Below, one piece after another: positions 19,846 through 63,962 of a DNA stretch of 64,000 bases. The DNA is from Theristus sp. LFF4_11 (taxonomy: Eukaryota > Nematoda > Chromadorea > Monhysterida > Xyalidae), in assembly GCA_030248135.1 (NCBI GenBank), contig JASANC010002777.1:51797-115796 (forward strand), given 5' to 3'. The stretch's first letter is position 1; each line of letters begins with the position of its first letter. The notes below the pieces were generated by a model, which saw nothing but the letters and a program-made list of their open reading frames with translations, had not been told where the DNA came from and did no database searches. The translations under genes and the position numbers were made by a program.

Positions 19846-20376
19846 CCAGTTGCGAAAGCGGGACCTCGGGTGAGGGGGGGGGGTGTTTGCCTAATTTTAG
19901 AGGGGGGGGTCAGGTGCCTTCTCGGTGAGGGGGGGTGCACGGGCAGCAAATTTTCCTGAGGGGGGGTGCACTGGCAGAAAAATTTCGTGAGGGGGGGGGG
20001 TGCACGGGATCGCACGGGTAATACCAAATTTTTGCCTTAGAAAAACACAGAAATTCTTGTAAAATACAGAATATTTTGTGCAAACAAGCTGCTTGTTTGG
20101 TCAGAAACAACAAAATCTATGCAGTGACAGACACAAACGTCAAGAAAAATGCAAAAATTACGGTATTTTTGGAAAAAATTGAGATGAGATTGACCACCGT
20201 GAGGGGGGGTGCGATCCCGTGTTTTCTCGCGGAGGGGGGTGGGGGGGAGTCTAGTACCCGTGTCGAGGTAAAGGGGGGGAGGGGGGTACACGGGTATCTG
20301 CCCGTGCACGGGCAGGATTTTCGGCTGAGGGGGGGGTGGGGACCCCCCCCCCCCCCCCCCCGCACTTTCGCTACTG
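19846..20376. mobile_element. G-rich hAT-like element, family B' copy 1
   Basis: Ends are CAGTTGCGAAAGCGG... and ...CTTTCGCTACTG, an imperfect inverted pair. Both sides carry CCCCCCTC, an 8-bp duplication in low-complexity sequence. The interior has many runs of 6-10 G separated by GTGCACGGGCAG-type blocks. It is non-autonomous with no transposase ORF. A second, damaged copy starts at 39528. Confidence 0.7.
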
Positions 20377-20403: not shown

Positions 20404-21113
20404 TAGGGTTGTTAAACAAAAATCAATTTTTTTTTAAAGTGATTAAAAAAAAACAAAAATGCCGATTTAAAAAAAAAATTCGAAAATTTTTTCTCTAATA
20501 TGCTCTGAATGAAATGAAAACCTCAATTTTGGCACAATTTTTCGAAAGTTCAGCAAAAATTTTTTTTGATATTACCTCGTAAAACCTTTAGCAGTCGATT
20601 TTGGACCGTTTTACCGACTGATTTCAGGCTTATACAACATCTGCGATGAAGTTTTTGAGCGTCCCAAAGGTTGGCTTACCATTTCCGATGCAGATAAGCT
20701 GACGATTCGCCTCGCAATCTAAATTTGAGCGTCCAAGCTGCTCCGTTTGCAATCGTTACGTTGTCTGGTTGCCGTTTCGTGTCCTGCCGTCGCGACGCGA
20801 CACATCATCAGATTTGATCGAATTTCAAGCCGTTATGTGTATTTTCACTTGGGCTGGGTACAATAAGTGACGTTTTGGGGGTCAAAACACTAGAAGAGGC
20901 ATGGTAACGGTTTGGAAAAGGGGTAATTGAGGTCACCAAAACAAAATCTCCAAAGTTCCGCCATACGGGAGTCATTCCGGAGGCGCTTGCATATCATATG
21001 TGGTTCTTCGAACTCCCTGATTGATTTAGCACAACTTTTATTTTTGAAATTAAAAAAAAAATTAAAAAAACAAAAAAACAAAAATGACGATTTTTGTTTT
21101 TTTAACAACCCTA
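20404..21113. mobile_element. hAT-like MITE, family A copy 1 (intact)
   Basis: A 710-bp element with ends TAGGGTTGTTAAACAAAAAT and (reversed) TAGGGTTGTTAAAAAAACAA. It is flanked by a perfect 8-bp duplication, CCCTACGC, at 20396-20403 and 21114-21121. The interior holds a stable non-coding core (e.g. CCTCGTAAAACCTTTAGCAG; GGCATGGTAACGGTTTGG) found again in the copies at 37784, 40448, 41048 and 43287. The 8-bp TSD and short TIR are hAT-superfamily hallmarks. No transposase is encoded. Confidence 0.88.
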
Positions 21114-21527: not shown

Positions 21528-24500
21528 ATGTTGAAAAAGTTTGAAACAAAATCGGCCCGCGTGAAAGGTTTGTTCACTGATCACTGTCCGGTTTTTGTTT
21601 TAGTTTTCTTTCATCACCACGTCTTTATTTTGATCACTAGCAATCGCGTTGCTGCGAAGTACCTTTTTAAATCAGACAACTGTTCAACGTGAACGTACAC
21701 AGGCATTTCGTTCAACGGGAGCCGTCCGTGGGTGCTGTGCAGTCTGCACAACGGCGTCGTCCAGCTCTGGGACTACCGCATGTGCACGCTGATTGAAAAG
21801 TTTGAGGAGCACGACGGGCCGGTTCGCGGCATCTGCTTCCACACGCAGCAGCCGATATTCGTCAGTGGCGGCGACGACTACAAAATAAAGGTCAGCTGCT
21901 CGCGCGGACGCGACACTCGCACGCTTTCACAATAAAGGGATCGTAGAAATTAATGCTGAAACGCGATGACACTGTCGTGCACGTTATCGTTGCAAAATGA
22001 TACTGTACCCACCCGGTTGGGTGTGGCCTTTGTGCTGTACGTTGGAAGTTGGAAGCTGTTGGTTTTCCCGTTTTTGAATTTGTTGTTTCCCTTCCCCAGT
22101 TCTGGAAAACGCAAAAGGCCGAAAGGTGCCAAACTGCTCTGATTTGTGTTTGTGCCGTGGACTCGTGGTGTGTGTAGGGTGGCGCTGAGCTGAGCGTCCG
22201 CGTCCGACGAAACAAGACAACCCTCGAGCGCAATGTGATTCTATTACTTTTACTTTTACAGGTGTGGAACTACAAGCAGCGTCGTTGCATATTCACGTTG
22301 CTCGGCCACCTTGACTACATTCGAACGGTGTTCTTCCATGTCAAGTATCCGTGGATCGTGAGTGCGTCCGACGATCAAACCATTCGAATTTGGAACTGGC
22401 AGTCGAGAAACAGCATCGCCATACTAACTGGTACGCTTTGTGTGGCATTTTGGTCATATATGTCTGATAATGGAACGTGGAAACAACTCTATAGCCTGTT
22501 TTGAATGTTCATATGTGACTGTTTCGCAGGCCACAACCACTACGTGATGTGCGCGCAGTTCCATCCAACGGACGATCTTGTTGTCAGTGGGTCACTCGAT
22601 CAGACCATTCGCATCTGGGACATCAGGTTCGTTGGTTGTTGTTGTTGTGTAGATACAAACGAAGATTGTGTGTTTCACAAAAACTGGTCAACAAAATACA
22701 GCCGGTTTTCCAGCGGTCTGCGCAAGAAGAACGTTGCACCCGGTCCGGGCGGGCCGGAAGAGCGCACGGTGCGGAGCCCAACGGCGGCGGCCGCGGGTCA
22801 AACGGACCTGTTTGGGCAGCCTGATGTGGTCGTGAAGCACGTGCTCGAGGGACACGACCGCGGCGTCAACTGGGTCTGCTTCCATGCGTCCGTGTCGCTG
22901 ATCGCATCCGCTGCTGATGATCGACAGGTGGTGATTGGCTGGGCCATGCAAAAACTCACCAATCAGCGTTCACCTTCAAACAGTGCAGCTCGGCTAACAT
23001 TCATTGAGAAGGCTGTACCTGTATCTGTATGAAAGTAACAAATAGAAGGTGGGCGCGCGCACTCCGCCTAAACGTGGCTTAAGTAAGATTACTCAACTTG
23101 TCTGTGTTTCATGTTACAATTCAGGTGAAACTGTGGCGGTACACGGACAGCAAGGCGTGGGAGGTTGACTCGTGCCGCGGCCACTACAACAACGTCTCTG
23201 CGGTCGTGTTCCATCCGCGTGCGGAGCTGCTCTTGAGCAACGCGGAGGACAAAAGCGTCAAAGTGTGGGACATGAACAAACGCACCTGCCTGCATACGTT
23301 CCGGTGCGATGCATGCTGCGTTTGGATTGTTTGCTCACCAGATTAGTAGCATGCCAACTGCGAATTGAGTACTGGCTGGTGACTGTGTACAGTCAATCTC
23401 GCTAATATATGCAACTAGCTGATTGGTTGATCATAGCAACTCTCAGCGCTGACTGGTTAATCATGAGGTGTTCTCAGCGCTGATTGGTTGGTCATCACGT
23501 CATGTTCGCGTCATGTTGCATACATTTTCCAGATGGACTGTGTATGCGTGCAGTGGGGCTGTAAATCGTAGGAAATCAGCTGGTTGGCTGTATTTGAGTT
23601 GGGCTCATTCTAATTTGCTGGTTTAGCCAGCTTGATAAAGCCGCTCAACAGCATGCCACATTCTGATGGCAGACTGCGCAAATTGTGTATGTGTTCATGT
23701 TGACTCCAGGAGACTCCAATGTGTGCATTTCATTGTTTAATTTGCTCAGCGGTTGCATTTTGTTGTTTTCAGTCATGACAACGACCGTTTCTGGGTGCTT
23801 GCGGCGCATCCAAGTCTGAATTTGTTTGCTGCTGGCCACGACTCAGGCATGGTCGTGTTCAAGATTGACCGAGAACGACCAGCCTATGCGACCTATCAGA
23901 ATCTGCTGTTCTACGTCAAGGTCAGTCGGCGATGTCCTATACGAGCTTTTCTCACAATAGTACGTTTCAAAAAACGTTTTTTTTTTGTTTCTAGGATCGA
24001 ATTCTGCGTCGACTGGACTTGACGAACGCCAAAGATCTACCAATGATGCAAATCCGCGGCGGGAAACAGGTAAACGCGCTTCAGTTCAGTCAATGGAAGG
24101 CTTGCTTGAAAATGAATGAATGCTAACATTTGAATTGATGTAAAGAGTTGCTGTTCAGCACGTGAGAAGGTCTGACACGCTTCAACATAAATGCCCTTGA
24201 AGCAAGTCTGTACATATTTCTCAAGCCTTGTGTGTTTTGTGTTGCTGCAGCTGTACCCGTACTATGCGCTGATGTACAACCCAGCAGAGAGCGCTGTCAT
24301 TCTGACCACGCGTCCGCCGACGCAAGAGAACGCTCACTACGATCTGTACAGTGTGCCGCGAGATCCGGCCGAAGCTGGGTCAACGCCGGATGCACCAGAA
24401 GGAAAACGGTCGGTGATGTTTGGCACATGGCCGCTGTCTGAATACAAGTGTCCGAGTGGTTGACTGCATGCAATCAGTGTGTTGCTCGTGCAACGTGCTG

Positions 24501-37783: not shown

Positions 37784-38953
37784 TAGGGTTGTTAAAAAAA
37801 CAAAAATCGTCATTTTTGTTTTTTTTAAAGAAAAAATTAAAAAAAAAAATTTCAAAAATCAAAGTTGTGCTAAATCAATCAGGGAGTTCGAAGAACCACA
37901 TATGATATGCAAGCGCCTCCGGAATGACTCCCGTATGGCGGAACTTTGGAGATTTTGTTTTGGTGACCTCAATTACCCCTTTTCCAAACCGTTACCCATA
38001 GTTGTTCTAGGGGGGGGGGGCCTGGGGGGGCCGGCCCCCCCCCCAAAAAAATTTTCGAATCTATCTCTATCAAACAGGTTTTTTTCGGCTCAGCTATTAT
38101 CTATCTAAAAAAATTTCTCAGCCAGCTATCTATCTGAAAAATTTTGTCTTCGAGGACATAAAATGAGTCAATTTTTGAGCAAAATTGACCATTTTTGCTC
38201 GTAATTCTTGAAAATTTCGCTACATTTAGGTAAAATACGCGCTTATACTTGATTTTTAGTGTATTTTTAGCATTATTTTGCTGTTTTTATAGCTTTTTAT
38301 TGTTTTAGCTATCTATCTATCAAATTTCAAAATTTTGACCGCCCCCCCCCAAAGTCACATGGCCCCCCCCCCAAAATTTTCCAGCTATCTATCTATCTAG
38401 AAAATTTGCTCCAGCTATCTATATCGCCCCCCCCCCAACCCCTCGGCTCTGGAACAACTATGCCGTTACCATGCCTCTTCTAGTGTTTTGACCCCCAAAA
38501 CGTCACTTATTGTACCCAGCCCAAGTGAAAATACACATACCGGCATGAAATTCGATCAAATCTGATGATGTGTCGCGACGGCAGGACACGAAACGGCAAC
38601 CAGACAACGTAACGATTGCAAACGGAGCAGCTTGGACGCTCAAATTTAGATTGCGAGGCGAATCGTCAGCTTATCTGCATCGGAAATGGTAAGCCAACCT
38701 TTGGGACGCTCAAAAACTTCATCTCAGATGTTGTATAAGCCTGAAATCAGTCGGTAAAACGGTCCAAAATCGACTGCAAAAGGTTTTACGAGGTAATATC
38801 AAAGAAAATTTTTGTTGAACTTTCGAAAAATTGTGCCAAAATTGAGGTTTTCAGAGCATATTAGAGAAAAAATTTTCGAATTTAAAAAAAAATCGGCATT
38901 TTTGTTTTTTTTAATCACTTTTTTTAAATTTTGATTTTTGTTTAACAACCCTA
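37784..38953. mobile_element. hAT-like MITE, family A copy 2 (interrupted by D1)
   Basis: Reverse orientation relative to copy 1. The ends TAGGGTTGTTAAAAAAACAA and (reversed) TAGGGTTGTTAAACAAAAAT are both present. A perfect 8-bp duplication, GTTTTGAG, lies at 37776-37783 and 38954-38961. Removing the nested element at 37997-38462 gives about 700 bp, the length of copy 1. Confidence 0.9.
37997..38462. mobile_element. hAT-like MITE, family D copy 1 (nested in A2)
   Basis: Ends CATAGTTGTTCTAG and (reversed) CATAGTTGTTCCAGAGC. A perfect 8-bp duplication, CCGTTACC, lies at 37989-37996 and 38463-38470; the uninterrupted family A sequence (20902 region, reversed) has this 8-mer once. Long G run after the left end, C runs before the right. 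Confidence 0.9.
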
Positions 38954-39480: not shown

Positions 39481-40447
39481 CAGTACCGTGGGCCCAAAAA
39501 AAATTTCGAAAGGGGGGGGGTATGGTACAGTAGCGAAAGCGGGACCTTGGGTGAGGGGGGGGTGTTTGCCAAATTTTAGAGGGGGGTGTCAGGTGCCTTC
39601 TGGGGGGGGGGGTGCACGGGCAGCAAATTTTCCTGAGGGGGGGTGCACTGGCAGAAAAATTTCGTGAGGGGGGTGCACGGGATCGCACGGGTAATACCAA
39701 ATTTTTGCCTTAGAAAAACACAGAAATTCTTGTAAAATACAGAATATTTTGTGCAAACAAGCTGCTTGTTTGGGCAGAAACAACAAAATATATGCAGGTA
39801 CAGACACAAACGTCAAGAAAAATGCAAAAATTACGGTATTTTTGGAAAAAAATAAGATGAGATTGACCACCGTGAGGGGGGGTGCGATCCCGTGTTTTCT
39901 CGCGGAGGGGGGTGGGGGGAGTCTAGTACCCGTGTCGAGGTAAAGGGGGGGAGGGGGGTACACGGGTATCTGCCCGTGCACGGGCAGGATTTTCGGCTGA
40001 GGGGGGGGGGTGGACCGTGGACCCCCCACCCCCCCGCACTTTTTATTAATTTTCTGTGGGGGGTCCACCCCTCCCACCCTCCATGATGTTTTTTCGCTTA
40101 AATTTTGAAGGAAAAACGCTAAATTTTGCTGCAAAATCTTTGAAATTACGATGAAGGTGGTCAAGTTATCATATATTCAGCTTATATTATGGACGTTATA
40201 GACAAAAAATCATGATTTTCGAAAAAAAATTTTAGGGTGTGCAAAAAATTTGGGGGGGGTCTCCGCCAGACAAAATTTCATGGGGGGTGTGGCGGGTGTC
40301 GGCCAAATTTTCGAGGGGGTGCCCGGTTTTAGGGGGGGTGGCACGGTGCCGACCGTCGGGGGCGGCACCGTGCCACCCCCCTAAAACCGGGCACCCCCCC
40401 CCCATCGGACCCCCCCCTCGAAATTGGCCGACACCCCCCCCCCACAC
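39481..40447. mobile_element. G-rich elements B copy 2 and B' copy 2 (damaged, nested)
   Basis: Family B end CAGTACCGTGGGCCCAAAAA at 39481, then at 39528 the B' end CAGTAGCGAAAGCGGGACC. The B' interior matches 19846-20376 closely, including TGCAAACAAGCTGCTTGTTT. The B' right end is lost (CGCACTTTTTATTAA instead of CGCACTTTCGCTACTG), and the text continues directly into B interior sequence (TTTTCGCTTAAATTTTGAAG). A deletion or gene conversion joined them. ORFs here are proline- or glycine-rich artefacts of the C/G runs. Confidence 0.65.
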
Positions 40448-41047
40448 TAGGGTTGTTAACAGTACCGTGGGCGGGGTACACCCCCCCCCCCAGAGCACCA
40501 GAGACCGTCGGGTGGGGGGGGGTGGGAGGGGGCACCGTGCCCCCCCCCCTAAAACCGGGCACCCCCCCCCCCCCCAGAGCACCAGAGACCGTCGGGTGGG
40601 GGGGTGGAGGGGGGGCACCGTGCCACCCCCCTAAAACCGGGCACCCCCCCATCGGACCCCCCTCGAAAATTTGGCCGACACCCCCCACACCCCCCATGAA
40701 ATTTTGTCTGGCGGAGACCCCCCAAAATTTTCCGTACACCCTAAAATTTTTTTCGAAAATCATGATTTTTTGTCTATAAAGTCCATAATATAAGCTGAAT
40801 ATATGATAACTTGATCATCTTCATTGTCATTTCAAAGATTTTGCAGCAAAATTTAACGTTTTTCCTTCAAAATTTAAGCGAAAAAATATCATGGGGGGTG
40901 GGGGGGTGGGGGGGTGGACCCCCCACAGAAAATTTTGAAAAAATGCACCCCCCCATGGGACCCCATGGGGTGGGGGTCCCACGTTACCATAGGTTGGACC
41001 CCCCTCACTTTTTGGTCGGCACCCCCCCCCCCCCACGGCACCATACC

Positions 41048-42808
41048 TAGGGTTGTTAAACAAAAATGAAAATTTAAAAAAAAAATGATAAAAAAAACAA
41101 AAATGCCGATTTTTTTTTTAAATTCGAAAAAATTTCCTCTAATATGCTCTGAAAACCTCAATTTTGGCACAATTTTTCGAAAGTTCAACAAAAATTTTCT
41201 TTGATTATACCCGGAGTGCTACATTATGAAAGAAATGCACATGCATCTTCATCAAAAATCCATTCCACTGGTACGGGTGCAGCGGCTGCACACGCACAGC
41301 ATTTTACTCATCTGTGGAGAAGTGTCGGAAACCTATCTGTAATACTTGTCGATGTGGAAACTGGATCAGAAAACAAACTGGAACGATGGACTGATTCCAT
41401 TTAGCGTTGCGTTATCAGTCTCTCCTTCAATTCACCAGTTTTTTATTGTTTCAAAGGCTGTTAGCTCTGTATCTGTTTGTCTGTCTGTTCTCCCTGCTGT
41501 GCCACAGTGCAAGCAAAAAAAGTGACGATGTGTGCTGTTCTGTTTGACGTGAGTCGTGAGGCATACAATTAAACTTGATTGATTTATGAAAATCGGCTAA
41601 AATCACTTTTTTCAGTGATGTTTTCGTGTCTCTTGTTCAGTTCGTCCGATTTCCGTCTGCGATTGCTGCCTGATTGGATTGTACTGTGCCATGAGTGAGT
41701 TTAGCTGCCACAAATTTTTGATAGGGCACAAAGTTGTTCTAGCCACAACCGCTCGAATGTGCGTCCAGAAATTGTTCGTCGTTGTAGCCTGGTCTGGTGG
41801 TGATATCACCAATCAACGTGCCCGATTCATTTTTCATTTGTTTTTCTGGGCAAGCCAATCAGGGCGCGATCAACCAACCGACCTTTATTTCGATCTTCAT
41901 TTTAAGATTTCTGTTTATGGTCATCATGGTCTTGTGCACCATGCAACCAATCATTTGTTTGTGTCTCTGAGTCAACCAATCAGAATCTCTGGCATCTCTG
42001 AGATCGCGAACAACGGCCGAAAGCACACGAATGGCGCCGCTTCAGCTTCTTCACTACGTTCCTTAATTCAAGAAGTTGCAACAAGGAATTGCTTTTTCTC
42101 TCTTTGATTGAAAAACTAAACGACAGAAAACTAAATGAGTTTGGCTGCCACACCTTTTTAAAACGTCTTTTTCTTTTTGTAAAGCGTGAGTACTTATAAT
42201 TCACGCTCCGGTTTTTTTGCTGTTTAGTACAAATTATTTCTTTCCCTATGTAGGCCAACCGATTATACCTCGTAAAACCTTTAGCAGTCGATTTTGGGCC
42301 GTTTTACCGACTGATTTTAGGCTTCGACAACATCTGCGATGAAGTTTTTGAGCGTCCCAAAGCTTAGCCTACCATTTCCGATGCAGATAAGGTGACGATT
42401 CGCCTCGCAGAGCGTCCGATTGTGCTCGCTGCTGCGTTTGCAAGCGCTACGTTGTCTGGTTGCTGCTTCGTGTCGTGTCGTCGCGACACCATCAGAAGAA
42501 TTGATCGAATTTCAAGGCGGTATGTTTGTCTTCACTTTAGCATTAGCTTAGCTGGGGACAATTAGTGACGTTTTGGAGGTCAAAACACAAGAAGAGGCAT
42601 GGTGACGGTTTGGAAAAGGGGTAATTGAGGTCACCAAAACAAAATCTGCAAAGTTCCGCCATACGGGAGTCATTCGGGAGGCGCTTGCATATCATATGTG
42701 GTTCTTCGGACTCCCTGATTGATTTAGCACAACTTTGATTTAAAAAAATTTAAAAAAAAAAATTTTTTTAAACAAAAATGACGATTTTTGTTTTTTTTAA
42801 CAACCCTA
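41048..42808. mobile_element. hAT-like MITE, family A copy 3 (nested in B3)
   Basis: Ends TAGGGTTGTTAAACAAAAAT and (reversed) TAGGGTTGTTAAAAAAAACA. A perfect 8-bp duplication, ACCATACC, lies at 41040-41047 and 42809-42816. Interrupted by E1; without it the element is about 710 bp. Confidence 0.9.
41212..42260. mobile_element. Element E1 (nested in A3), with possible captured sequence
   Basis: An insertion of about 1.05 kb flanked by GATTATACC at 41203-41211 and 42261-42269. Ends CGGAGTGCTACATTA... and (reversed) CGGTTGGCCTACATAGGG are weakly similar, so an 8-bp TSD (ATTATACC) with short TIRs is plausible. The TAGGCCAACC end recurs at 17404 and 37372. Near the left end an open frame reads HLWRSVGNLSVILVDVETGS and stops after WTDSI at 41403, followed by a 3'-UTR-like tract. 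A further ORF (41679-42107) is unrecognised. Confidence 0.65.
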
Positions 42809-43018
42809 ACCATACCCCCCCTTCGAAAATTGTTTTGGGCCCACGGTACTGGTTGTTAAACAAAAATGAAAATTAAAAAAAAAAGTGATTAAAAAAAACA
42901 AAAATGCCGATTTTTTTTAAATTCGAAAAATTTTCCTCTAAAATGCTCTGAGCGTTACGTTGTCTGGTTGCCGTTTCGTGCCCTGCCGTCGCGACACATC
43001 ATCAGAATTGATCCAATA

Positions 43019-43286
43019 AGCTTTGCCTACATTACTAAACCAAAGCCCAGTTTACAGTCTGTTTTGTTGTTTAGTTCGGTTTCAATGAAGTCGTTGTAGG
43101 TTCCTAATCCTAAGCCCAATCCTAATCCTACTGAAGTCGTTGTAGGTTCCTAATCCTAAACCTAATCCTAATCCTAAGTGAAGCCTTTTTAACAAAGTGA
43201 AAGTGCCTTGATTGACAGCTTTGTTGAAGGGGTGAAACATTGGGATCAGGGATCAGCTCCGACTCCGGTTTAGCTTTGTAGTTTTA
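43019..43286. repeat. TTAGG-like runs and fragments
   Basis: GTTCCTAATCCTAA.CC units repeat twice (about 43090-43180) with AAGTCGTTGTAGGTTCC, matching 21183-21240. Part of the dispersed telomere-like family. Confidence 0.5.
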
Positions 43287-43557
43287 CGGAATTTCAAGCC
43301 GGTATGTGTATTTTCACTTGGGCTGGGGACAATTAGTGACGTTTTGGGGGTCAAAACACTAGAAGAGGCATGGTAATTGGTAACGGTTTGGAAAAGGGGT
43401 AATTGAGGTTACCAAAACAAAATCTCTAAAGTTCCGCCATATGGGAGTCATTCCGGAGGCGCTTGCATATCATATGTGGTTCTTCGAACTCCCTGATTGA
43501 TTTAGCACAACTTTGATTTTTGTAATTAAAAAAAAAATTTGTTTTTTTAACAACCCT
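43287..43557. mobile_element. Family A copy 5 (left-truncated)
   Basis: Begins inside the core (GGAATTTCAAGCCGGTATGTG) and runs to the family end TTTTTTTAACAACCCT. It is followed by CCCTAC, and by GC after the B4 insertion, so its right flank resembles the CCCTACGC target of copy 1. Confidence 0.7.
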
Positions 43558-43563
43558 CCCTAC

Positions 43564-44887
43564 CAGTACCGAAGACGAGGGGGGTGGGGGGGTACACCTA
43601 GAGATGTAAGGGTCAAAAAAAATTTTTTTTTTTTAAATTTTTTTTTTAAAAAAAAGTAAAAAAAAATGAGCATTTTTTTTTTATTTTTTTTATTAAAAAT
43701 TTTTGAAATTTTTTCTTTAATGTGCCCTGAAAATGCCGTTTTTGGCATAATTTTTCGAAAGTTCAACAAAAATTTTCTTTGACTTTACCTTGTCACTTAG
43801 TCTTCAACGCTGCAGGTGGTATTCTGGATTGATTTATCGACTGTTTTCAGCCTTGGTGAGTGATGATCGACTCGCGCATTGAAGTACTTGAGCGTCGCAA
43901 AGGCTAGTTCAACAAATTCCGATGTCGCTAAGGTGAGATAGAAGCAGAGAACTCACATTTACGCATCGTTTTTCAGGATCTCGAAAGGTGGAAATTGCAC
44001 TGTCTGCCACTGCAAGCGTAACTTCGTTGGTTGCTCGTTGCTGTTTCGCCTCGTGTCGTCAGCGTGATCACACCGGTTTGTTGTGGAACTTGTTTCCATG
44101 TTATTTGAGGTGAATTGAGAGGCAAAACACGAGACGTGATGTCGTCGGTGGGAAAATGGGGTCGCCGAAACCAAGTCTGAAATTTTCACCCTCCTCCCAT
44201 ATGAGTGGGGGTCATATGGTAAGTCGGTGGCTCCTCAGATGGTGATATTCGGACTCCCTGAAAAATTCTGAACAACTTTCATTTTTAAAAAAAAAAATTT
44301 AAAAAAAAAATTTTTTTTTTTTAAAAAAAGAAAAAAAATAGAAAATTTTTTTTTTCTTGACATCTCTAGGTACACCCCCCCCAGAGCACCCGAGACCTCC
44401 GCGTGGGGGGGGGGTGGGGGGGTCACGCGACACCCACCCCCCAAAACCTGACACTGGACCATCCACACCCCCCCTCGAAATTTGCTAGACACCCCCCCCA
44501 CCCCCCCCCCTAGATGGACCTAAGTAACAGTGACACCCCCCAAAAATTTTCTCGGACCACTCAAAAATCATGAATTTTTGCTCAAAAATCATGATTTTTT
44601 GTCTTTAAAGACCATAATATAAGCTAAATATATGATAACTTGACATTCTTCATTGTAATCTCAAAGATTTTGCAGCAAAATTTAGTGTTTTTCCTTCAAA
44701 ATTTAAGCGAAAAAATCTCATGGGTGGGGTGGGGGGTGTGCACCCCCCCCCAGAAAATTTTCTACAATAGTGCACCCCCCCCATGGCCCACGCCTGGGGG
44801 GGGTGTCACTGTACCATGACTGACACCCCCCCCACTGAAAAAATTTCGGCACCCCCCCTCGAAAATTTGCTTTCGCCTTCGGTACTG
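43564..44887. mobile_element. G-rich hAT-like element, family B copy 4 (interrupted by C1)
   Basis: Ends CAGTACCGAAGACGAGG and (reversed) CAGTACCGAAGGCGAAAG. A perfect 8-bp duplication, CTCCCTAC, lies at 43556-43563 and 44888-44895. The interior includes ATATATGATAACTTGACATT, TTTTCCTTCAAAATTTAAGC and the usual C/G runs. Confidence 0.9.
43599..44368. mobile_element. hAT-like MITE, family C copy (nested in B4)
   Basis: Ends TAGAGATGTAAGGGTCAA and (reversed) TAGAGATGTCAAGAAAAA. A perfect 8-bp duplication, GGTACACC, lies at 43591-43598 and 44369-44376. The layout (T/A-rich arms, TTTTTCGAAAGTTCAACAAA, then a unique middle) parallels family A, so C looks like a diverged sister of A. Confidence 0.9.
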
Positions 44888-61176: not shown

Positions 61177-62771
61177 CAGTTCCGTGGGCCCAAAACAATT
61201 TTCGAAGGGGGGGTATGGTGCCGTGGGGGGGGGGGTGCCGACCAAAAAGTGAGGGGGGGTCCAACCTATGGTAACGTGGGACCCCCATGGGGGGGGGGGT
61301 GCATTTTTTTCAAAATTTTCTGTGGGGGAGTCCACCCCCCACCCCCCATGATAATTTTTCGCTTAAATTTTGAAGGAAAAACGCTAAATTTTGCTGCAAA
61401 ATCGTTGAAATTATAATGAAGATGGTCAAGTTATCATATATTCAGCTTATATTATGGACTTTATTTAAAGACAAAAAGTCATGATTTTCAAAAAAATTTT
61501 TAGGGTGTACGGAAAATTTTGGGGGGGGTCTCCGCCAGACAAAATTTCATGGGGGTGTGGGGGGGGGTGTCGGCCAAATTTTCGAGGGGGAGGGGTCCGA
61601 TGGGGGGGGTGCCCGGTTTTAGGGGGGATGGCACTAGGGTTAGGTTTTTTTCCACACAAATCCGGATTTTTTTTAAATTAAAAAAAAAAATTTTTTTAAT
61701 TTTTTTACAAGTTAGGTTTGTTCGAAGCGTCTCGTCGAGCTGAGTTCATCTAGACTATTTTCAGAACGATCCGAAAAACTATAAGAGCGAAAATCGTGTT
61801 TTATTGAAATTATGTCCATTTCATAGAGGGAAAGTTGCATTTTCAACAGTAAAACAGGACAATTTTCGACGTGTACTTGAATATTGAACCGTTCTTAGTT
61901 GTTCCTCTTTAGAAAATTACCAAAATTTGACTGTGTTCAAAAATTCCTGTTTGCTGTAGCTAAGTCGGCAACCCCTGTCGACCCGGTCGCCCCCCCCCCC
62001 AAGACACTTACTTTCAGGTTCAACCAGCTATGCTATCTGCCACATGGCGAGAGCCCACTCTTCAAATCATCGTATCGAAAACACGTACCATGATTTCGCG
62101 ATCACGTTGCGGGCAACTGACAGACGCAAGTTTAACATGTTAGTTTAGCTCAGCACGCAAGTTTTAACATGTGGCCATGTTATCGGGTATCTGAAAAACG
62201 GTCGTGTGATGTGGTATTAACCAACATCTCCGCTCCAATTGTTTAACAATATATCGCACAACTCCATTGTAGACCTATAACATACGCCAATCAACAAGAT
62301 ATCATGTTCATCTCATGGCCTACCGACTGAAAAACATGTTCTAAGTTGCAAGAAAACGATTTCTGAAACGATATTTCAATTCAGTTAAGTCATTTCAACG
62401 CTAAAAATTGACTCTAGAAGTCATCCAAATCGAAAAACATAGAGTACGTCGGTCAAAATGACCAAATAATGACATTTACCTAAGCACACAAAGAAGTTGG
62501 GAAGAAAATTTGGTTTGAACTTTCAAAAAATTATGCCATAAATCGAATTTTCAGAGCAAAGTATAAGGAAAAATTTTTCAAATTTTTTTTAAGTTTGAAA
62601 AAAAATCCAAATTTAAAAACAAAAACAAAAAAAAATAAAAAAAATTTTTTTTCAAAGCCCCTAACCCTAAGTGGCACGGTGCCCACCACCCCCCCCCCCA
62701 CCCGACGGTCTCTGGTGCTCTGGGGGGGTGTACCCCCCCCCCCCCACCCCCCCTCGCCCACGGTAGTACTG
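61177..62771. mobile_element. G-rich hAT-like element, family B copy 5 (interrupted by F1)
   Basis: Ends CAGTTCCGTGGGCCCAAAAC and (reversed) CAGTACTACCGTGGGCGAGG. The interior has the B blocks (CCATGGGGG, ATATATTCAGCTTATATTAT, CGGCCAAATTTTCGAGG). No clear TSD was found; the flanks CTTGCAAG and CAAGGGAA differ. Interrupted at 61635. Confidence 0.75.
61635..62669. mobile_element. hAT-like element, family F (nested in B5)
   Basis: Ends TAGGGTTAGGTTTTTTTCCA and (reversed) TAGGGTTAGGGGCTTTGAAA. Flanking 8-mers GATGGCAC and AGTGGCAC agree at six positions. 1,035 bp. T/A-rich arms as in families A and C. No transposase ORF. Confidence 0.75.
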
Positions 62772-63830: not shown

Positions 63831-63962
63831 GGAGATCGTGGGCCCCATGGGGAGGGTCCCACGTTACTATAGGTTGGACCCCCCTCACTTTTTGGTCGGC
63901 ACCCGCCCCCCACGGCACCATACCCTCCCCCCTTCGAAAATTGTTTTGGGCCCACGGTACTG
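63831..63962. mobile_element. Family B end fragment (copy 6)
   Basis: Reads leftward from 63962 as CAGTACCGTGGGCCCAAAAC, then TTTTCGAAGGGGGG, a G run and CACTTTTTGGTCGGC in reverse, as in B3 and B5. It abuts the LINE fragment at about 63830. The last 38 bases of the window (ACATGGACCTAGGTTACAGT) resemble 44512-44533 inside B4. Confidence 0.75.

What the first reader, a model, noticed from the sequence alone, without database searches (positions are those of the whole stretch)
40448..43018. Four-level nest of hAT-like elements with readable TSDs
A4 contains B3 (TSD GTTGTTAA), which contains A3 (TSD ACCATACC), which contains E1 (duplication GATTATACC). Each interruption can be removed to restore the host element. 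The order gives relative ages: A4 oldest, then B3, A3 and E1 youngest. Two copies of family A on both sides of B in one stack show that A and B were active in alternation.
Basis: seen in the sequence. Interest (0 to 1): 0.75.

Follow-up and report, generated by a model that had tools for sequence, protein, structure and literature searches.

The report
Nested non-autonomous DNA transposons (MITEs)
Four short mobile DNA pieces sit one inside another like Russian dolls, each inner one flanked by the small duplicated footprint that its insertion left; similar stacking turns up elsewhere in the same genome, so the case is real and readable but largely ordinary.

Summary
The nest is real. B3 (40460-42851) lies in A4's left terminus between two GTTGTTAA copies, A3 (41048-42808) lies in B3 between two ACCATACC copies, E1 (41212-42260) lies in A3 between two 9-bp copies of GATTATACC. 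The same element ends recur across the genome with differing flanks; excising E1 and A3 gives elements 98.0% and 94.1% identical to consensuses of other copies. A and B are high-copy, short, terminal-inverted-repeat elements with 8-bp duplications. Corrections: (1) E1's family makes 9-bp duplications, so it is not hAT-like but within the Mutator-like range. (2) A4 does not end at 43018: a 269-bp repeat interrupts it (43020-43288) and A4 runs to 43557. (3) A4 cannot be cleanly restored: outer flanks agree in 6 of 8, and its left and right parts resemble different A subfamilies. (4) Nesting is common: 23 of 100 sampled A targets and 25 of 79 sampled B targets are 8-mers of A or B (column-shuffled means about 3.0 and 2.2). 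Some target sites recur, and one A+B composite may have moved as a unit, so nesting order is only a limited clock. New families of known kinds.

The parts
40448..43557 (+). A4: outer A element, interrupted, internally deleted and possibly chimeric (left ~100 bp nearest A-I, right part A-II); ends TAGGGTTGTTAA...TTAACAACCCT
40440..40447 (.). left flank of A4, CCCCACAC, continuous with B-family sequence on its left
40452..40459 (.). 8-bp duplication GTTGTTAA, left copy (in A's terminal repeat)
42852..42859 (.). 8-bp duplication GTTGTTAA, right copy
40460..42851 (+). B3: B element (CAGTACCGTGGGC...GCCCACGGTACTG), 2392 bp with its insert, 623 bp without
   Evidence: 94.1% to B consensus over 543 aligned bases after excision
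41040..41047 (.). 8-bp duplication ACCATACC, left copy
42809..42816 (.). 8-bp duplication ACCATACC, right copy
41048..42808 (+). A3: A element (TAGGGTTGTTAA...TTAACAACCCTA), 1761 bp with E1, 703 bp without
   Evidence: 98.0% to A consensus after excision
41203..41211 (.). 9-bp duplication GATTATACC, left copy
42261..42269 (.). 9-bp duplication GATTATACC, right copy
41212..42260 (+). E1: 1049-bp element of a family with 9-bp duplications (Mutator-like by duplication length only)
43020..43288 (+). M2: 269-bp repeat interrupting A4; 9-bp duplications, read by eye, at 3 of 3 other copies; left duplication degenerate here (2/9)
43564..44887 (+). B5: B-type element (CAGTACCGAAG terminus) inserted at A4's right edge, duplication CTCCCTAC
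43599..44368 (+). D: TAGAGATG-ended element inside B5, duplication GGTACACC
39482..40447 (.). B-derived, partly palindromic sequence left of A4, with a partial F element at about 39527-40038; possible fifth, outermost level seen on this side only

Best explanation
A stack of cut-and-paste, non-autonomous DNA transposons. A (about 709 bp) and B (about 561 bp) are short terminal-inverted-repeat elements, presumably moved by transposases encoded elsewhere; each insertion duplicates 8 bp of target. A B element entered the terminal repeat of an A element, an A of another subfamily entered that B, and an E element, which duplicates 9 bp, entered that A. The outer A was further changed by an internal deletion or a fusion with another A copy, a 269-bp insert, and a B-type insert at its right edge. 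Shown here: boundaries, duplications, uninterrupted sites, end counts, target bias, recurring junctions. Inferred: transposase supply, superfamily names, the A4 fusion, arrival one by one.
For: Identical duplications 8/8, 8/8, 9/9. Genome-wide 2,199 A left ends and 2,813 B ends with a non-T eight bases before; 0 for the backwards control pattern in both; of 15 A right ends found (30 loci), 8 had a left end with identical 8-bp flank, 2 with one mismatch, 3 did not match, 2 had no left end found; 42 of 100 listed B ends formed 21 pairs with identical flanks. A3 98.0% and B3 94.1% to consensus after excision (consensuses from 24 A and 9 B copies picked for exact duplications; one A at 9.8% and one B at 23.8% are outliers). 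E: 5 of 10 copies read have exact 9-bp duplications. A target majority letters GTCCGGAC, close to the hobo motif GTNCGNAC (PMC3276498 Table 4, passages seen).
Against: No transposase was tied to A, B or E termini. A4's outer duplication does not match (6/8 at best). 5 of 10 E copies lack an exact 9-bp duplication. 58 of 100 B ends found no partner with the same flank in the list (partners with T at -8 or a changed terminus are missed by design). GTCCGGAC is also the P-element motif in the same table. Assembly error in a G/C-run-rich contig cannot be excluded without reads; a nest of the same kind on contig C950 makes it less likely.
Confidence: 0.92

Rival explanations
1. Parts of the nest arrived ready-made: a host element that already carried its insert moved as one unit, so the order of arrival at this locus differs from the order of nesting.
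For: An A with B at GTTGTTAA is present at C950 (A duplication CCCCACAC) and C640 (A duplication GGCGTGCT). The two A copies differ by 1.29% (each 3.3-3.6% from consensus) and the two B copies by 3.6-3.8% (7-8% if their distances to consensus were unshared), so that composite may have moved or been copied. B at this site leaves A's outer 12-bp terminus intact.
Against: Even there A and B distances are unequal (1.3% against 3.6-3.8%), and C651's A is as close to C640's A (1.30%) while its B is of another subfamily (16.9% away), so relatedness of the A hosts alone does not show a joint move. For this window: B3 is no closer to the C950 or C640 B (4.6-5.0%) than to two other B copies (2.6 and 5.0%), and A3 is no closer to the A copies at the same B site in C3372 or C2163 (substitution identity 96.0-98.2%) than to others (up to 98.4%). 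Full-length E relatives are at most 92% identical (one 211-base piece 96%). Other copies of the whole A[E1] or B[A3] unit were not searched for directly.
Confidence: 0.12
2. All four elements are hAT.
For: A: TAGGG terminus and 8-bp duplications; in 6 of 10 loci read, hAT-domain elements of this genome begin TAGGGATGGA with 8-bp duplications (two of the six share one flank). E1's flanks could be read as an 8-bp duplication with CGG...CCG ends, and 1 of 10 other E copies fits 8 better than 9.
Against: 5 of 10 E copies, and E1 itself, show exact 9-bp duplications. B begins CAGTA, which misses the last base of the terminal motif YARNG (given for hAT from memory; the one paper seen, PMC2820524, passage, gives it for P elements).
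Confidence: 0.08
3. The apparent duplications are parts of the elements, or the nest is an assembly artefact.
For: G- and C-run-rich sequence is expected to assemble badly (inference); C-run lengths vary between copies.
Against: Flanks differ from copy to copy; nests of the same families lie on other contigs.
Confidence: 0.03

Closest known systems
hAT-superfamily MITEs, e.g. Mar and Vege of Drosophila (PMC3517528, passages seen)
   Same: Short, 11-12-bp terminal repeats, 8-bp duplications; Mar 610 bp, Vege 884 bp against A 709 bp and B about 561 bp
   Different: Sequences were not compared. Mar's target consensus is nnnTAnnn (Buster type), A's is GTCCGGAC-like; B is rich in G and C runs; no autonomous parent was found here
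Mutator-like elements (PMC10741241, passages seen: duplications of 7-12 bp)
   Same: E and M2 families make 9-bp duplications
   Different: Terminal repeats of E are short and imperfect, no transposase seen; the assignment rests on duplication length alone
Nested transposons in plants (PMC10741241, passages seen); interruption analysis (PMC2517846, search listing and start of abstract only)
   Same: Elements inserted in elements in several layers, used for relative order
   Different: Here short DNA transposons of a few families insert into one another, with recurring target 8-mers

Membership tests
hAT superfamily (element A) | 8-bp target-site duplication | tested here: met
   8 of 15 exact plus 2 with one mismatch; window copies at 20404, 37784 and 41048 exact
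hAT superfamily (element A) | short terminal inverted repeat beginning YARNG (motif recalled for hAT) | tested here: met
   TAGGGTTGTTAA / TTAACAACCCTA
hAT superfamily (element A) | target motif nTnnnnAn | tested here: met
   position 2 T in 46 of 100, position 7 A in 53 of 100, both in 25 of 100. The P element has a like motif (PMC3276498 Table 4), so it is a bias and not exclusive
hAT superfamily (element A) | mobilised by an hAT transposase | tested here: inconclusive
   150 scored hAT dimerisation domains in the genome; in the 10 loci read (about 3 kb each) no pair of A or B termini brackets the domain. The other 140 were not read for this
hAT superfamily (element B) | 8-bp target-site duplication | tested here: met
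   21 end pairs with identical flanks among 100 listed ends
hAT superfamily (element B) | terminal motif YARNG (recalled for hAT) | tested here: not met
   CAGTA: last base differs; so B is not filed as hAT, only as an 8-bp-duplication terminal-repeat element
hAT superfamily (element E1) | 8-bp target-site duplication | tested here: not met
   9 bp in the window and in 5 of 10 other copies; 8 in 1 of 10; none exact in 4 of 10
Mutator-like elements (element E1) | duplication of 7-12 bp | tested here: met
   range from PMC10741241. Other superfamilies with such lengths are not excluded
Mutator-like elements (element E1) | Mutator-type transposase in E1 or a related full-length element | not tested
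   the one E1 frame given to Pfam (41619-42107) matched nothing; the genome was not searched for the domain
MITE (A and B) | short, high copy, terminal repeats, no coding capacity | tested here: met
   consensus 709 and 561 bp, thousands of ends. One search lists no frame of 150 aa or more confined to A sequence of A3; one G/C-run frame (40329-40814, minus) lies across B sequence and was not searched. Coding is judged from length, not from a family search of A or B frames

The most novel reading that the evidence does not exclude
A and B are reciprocal preferred targets: B repeatedly enters one 8-mer inside A's terminal repeat (leaving A's outer terminus intact, so that the composite may still move), while A repeatedly enters a few 8-mers of B, so the two families use each other as landing sites and build self-propagating composites.
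Probability: 0.2. Interest if true: 0.55.

Novelty: new member of a known kind. Interest (0 to 1): 0.3.

Why it matters
A genome with thousands of short, cleanly bounded elements and many readable nests is a good natural test bed for target-site choice and for ordering bursts of transposition; the recurrence of the same nested junctions also warns that nesting order can reflect preferred sites or moved composites, not only time.

Tried and rejected
Rejected: that the flanking 8-mers belong to the inserted elements (flanks vary between copies); that A4 ends at 43018; that this nest is a copy of the C950 nest. C950 shows the same order B > A > B with the same duplications CCCCACAC and GTTGTTAA, which first looked like common descent, but its B copies are not close to B3 and its A is not close to A4's left part or A3, and CCCCACAC next to an A terminus occurs at 6 places (besides C950 and the window the other four were not read), so recurring target sites explain it better. 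An empty site for the whole cluster was sought with its right flank: only the window itself matched. No tRNA, and no Rfam match at the gathering threshold, in the window. Literature searches for nested or self-inserting hAT elements (titles and abstract starts seen) showed nothing on these families; that covers only the open-access library held. The organism was not identified.

Results against my reading: A4's outer duplication fails. The A4 left part has only one clear diagnostic site, and of the 23 sites from position 345 on, 19 are A-II and 4 are A-I, so an intermediate subfamily with an internal deletion remains possible instead of a fusion. Of 10 E copies read (ends of 10 of the 50 match rows), 5 lack an exact 9-bp duplication. 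M2's left duplication is degenerate here. The window's B copy at 61177 has no matching flanks. In the target sample some events may be two ends of one element or copies of one locus (e.g. CTGGGGAC twice on one contig, ACCACATA twice), and the two consensus pairs L016/L031 and L020/L025 share flanks, so independence is not complete. Of the five one-mismatch places, four were read and show no clear A beside B; they are not counted.

Full report
What the window is. It lies in a 159.4-Mb assembly of 3,744 contigs, G000:C1791:51797-115796. Of nine open frames given to Pfam one matched WD40 above cut-off and one MA3 below it; no tRNA and no Rfam match was found. I take it for a eukaryote; the organism was not identified.

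The observation. B3 is 40460-42851, flanked on both sides by GTTGTTAA; A3 is 41048-42808, flanked by ACCATACC; E1 is 41212-42260, flanked by GATTATACC (9 bases). A copies begin TAGGGTTGTTAA and end TTAACAACCCTA; B copies begin CAGTACCGTGGGC and end GCCCACGGTACTG.

Is it more than chance? Yes. An exact search for A's left end with any base but T eight positions before it finds 2,199 places, and for B's ends 2,813; the backwards control patterns find none. In the first A sample of 30 loci, 15 right ends were found: 8 have a left end with identical 8-bp flank, 2 with one mismatch, 3 do not match and 2 have no left end found (one of these is A3 itself, whose left end lies out of reach) (14 of the other 15 loci lay in the reverse orientation and one was clipped by a contig end). 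A scan of both strands that keeps only pairs with at most one mismatch lists 33 A pairs, 28 exact and 5 with one. Of the first 100 B ends listed, 42 form 21 pairs with identical flanks. The A consensus from 24 copies is 709 bp; 23 lie 0.1-2.7% from it and the window copy at 20404 lies 9.8% away. The B consensus from 9 copies is 561 bp; 8 lie 1.6-5.1% away and one 23.8%.

Excision. Removing E1 and one duplication copy gives an A3 of 703 bp, 98.0% identical to the A consensus; removing A3 gives a B3 of 623 bp, 94.1% identical to the B consensus over 543 aligned positions with 98 gap columns. The three target sites occur uninterrupted in other copies: E1's site at 67 places, A3's at 40, B3's at 44, counted over overlapping loci; within the window 63907-63962 is a B right end without A.

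The outer element. A4 does not stop at 43018. A 269-bp repeat, with 39 other places scored out of 1,157 first-look candidates, interrupts it at 43020-43288; at 3 of 3 other copies read, this repeat sits in a 9-bp duplication, read by eye. A4 then runs to 43557. It also lacks about 230 bp internally. Its left 100 bp are nearest to A-I copies (98% at best, 92% to the window's A-II copy), its right part to A-II-like copies (91-93%, against about 85% for A-I copies), and its outer flanks, CCCCACAC and CCCTACGC, agree in 6 of 8. The left flank is B sequence, the right is not. I read A4 as a rearranged, possibly fused element; an intermediate subfamily with an internal deletion is not excluded. A fifth, outermost B level is visible on the left side only.

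E1. Ten copies from the match rows were read at both ends: 5 show exact 9-bp duplications, 1 fits 8 bp, 4 have none exact. With the window's own 9/9 this speaks for a Mutator-like and against a hAT-like element, on duplication length alone.

How common is nesting? Of 100 A targets, 16 are 8-mers of the B consensus and 7 of the A consensus (column-shuffled means 1.5 and 1.5, maxima 6 and 5); of 79 B targets, 18 are 8-mers of B and 7 of A (means 1.1 and 1.1, maxima 4 and 5). The sample is the first listed places in contig order, T at the first position excluded; 8-mers made of G or C runs may lie in other G-rich families, and some rows may be two ends or two copies of one event. By majority the A targets spell GTCCGGAC, near the hobo motif GTNCGNAC and equal to that given for the P element (PMC3276498, Table 4, passages seen).

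Recurring junctions. TAGGGTTGTTAACAGTACCG (B in A's terminal repeat) occurs exactly at 4 places and with one mismatch at 5; of the 8 places besides the window, 6 were fetched, C950 was already in L066, and one on C3444 was not read. C640 and C950 carry closely related A copies and B copies that share part of their divergence, so one composite may have moved; C651 carries a B subfamily 16-17% different; B3 here is close to none of them. That makes at least three separate entries at one 8-mer. ACCATACC next to an A terminus occurs exactly at 3 places and with one mismatch at 6; at C2163 the A lies in the opposite orientation to A3 relative to the B on its right side, while its left side is another A, so at least two are separate. 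CCCCACAC next to an A terminus occurs at 6 places. These recurrences fit hot target sites; how far they exceed the general motif and copy number was not measured.

Meaning for ages. Nesting gives the order of junction formation if inserts arrived one by one. The C640/C950 case suggests that an element may travel with its insert, so the order is not a strict clock. Here B3 and A3 are not especially close to copies at the same sites elsewhere, so one-by-one arrival is the better reading. 'Alternation' reduces to overlapping activity.

Transposases. 150 hAT dimerisation domains were scored in the genome. In 6 of the 10 loci read a domain lies in a 1.5-1.7-kb element that begins TAGGGATGGA and has an 8-bp duplication (two of the six share one flank); in none of the 10 does a pair of A or B termini bracket the domain. 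Which enzyme moves A or B is unknown.

Verdict. A genuine, well-resolved nest of new families of known kinds, apparently typical of this genome; interest modest, raised a little by recurring, reciprocal target sites.

Noticed in passing
L066 (G000:C950, reverse strand 1-2515): A second nest, possibly five-deep: A containing B containing A (CCCCACAC duplication) containing B (GTTGTTAA duplication) that itself seems to hold another B.
   Followed up: partly
19847-20376: A third 8-bp-duplication family (F, CAGTTGCGAAAG...CTTTCGCTACTG), flanks CCCCCCTC on both sides; a partial copy lies at about 39527-40038 inside B-derived sequence.
   Followed up: partly
37997-38462: A 466-bp element with CATAGTTGTTC...GAACAACTATG ends and duplication CCGTTACC, inside an A copy (37784-38953, duplication GTTTTGAG).
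   Followed up: partly
43564-44887: B-type element with duplication CTCCCTAC, containing a TAGAGATG-ended element (43599-44368) with duplication GGTACACC: a further two-level nest beside the one reported.
   Followed up: partly
61177-62771: B copy interrupted by a TAGGGTTAGG-ended element (about 61635-62669) whose flanks GATGGCAC and AGTGGCAC, read by eye, agree in 6 of 8.
   Followed up: no
40036-40946: Large inverted repeat (164-nt arms, 94% complementary, plus neighbouring arms) made of two opposed B segments, a possible site of rearrangement.
   Followed up: no
L071 2539-3210: Open frame that by eye resembles the GIY-YIG end of a Penelope-like element; no search was made.
   Followed up: no
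22505-23032: Open frame with WD40 repeats (Pfam), probably an exon of a host gene.
   Followed up: no
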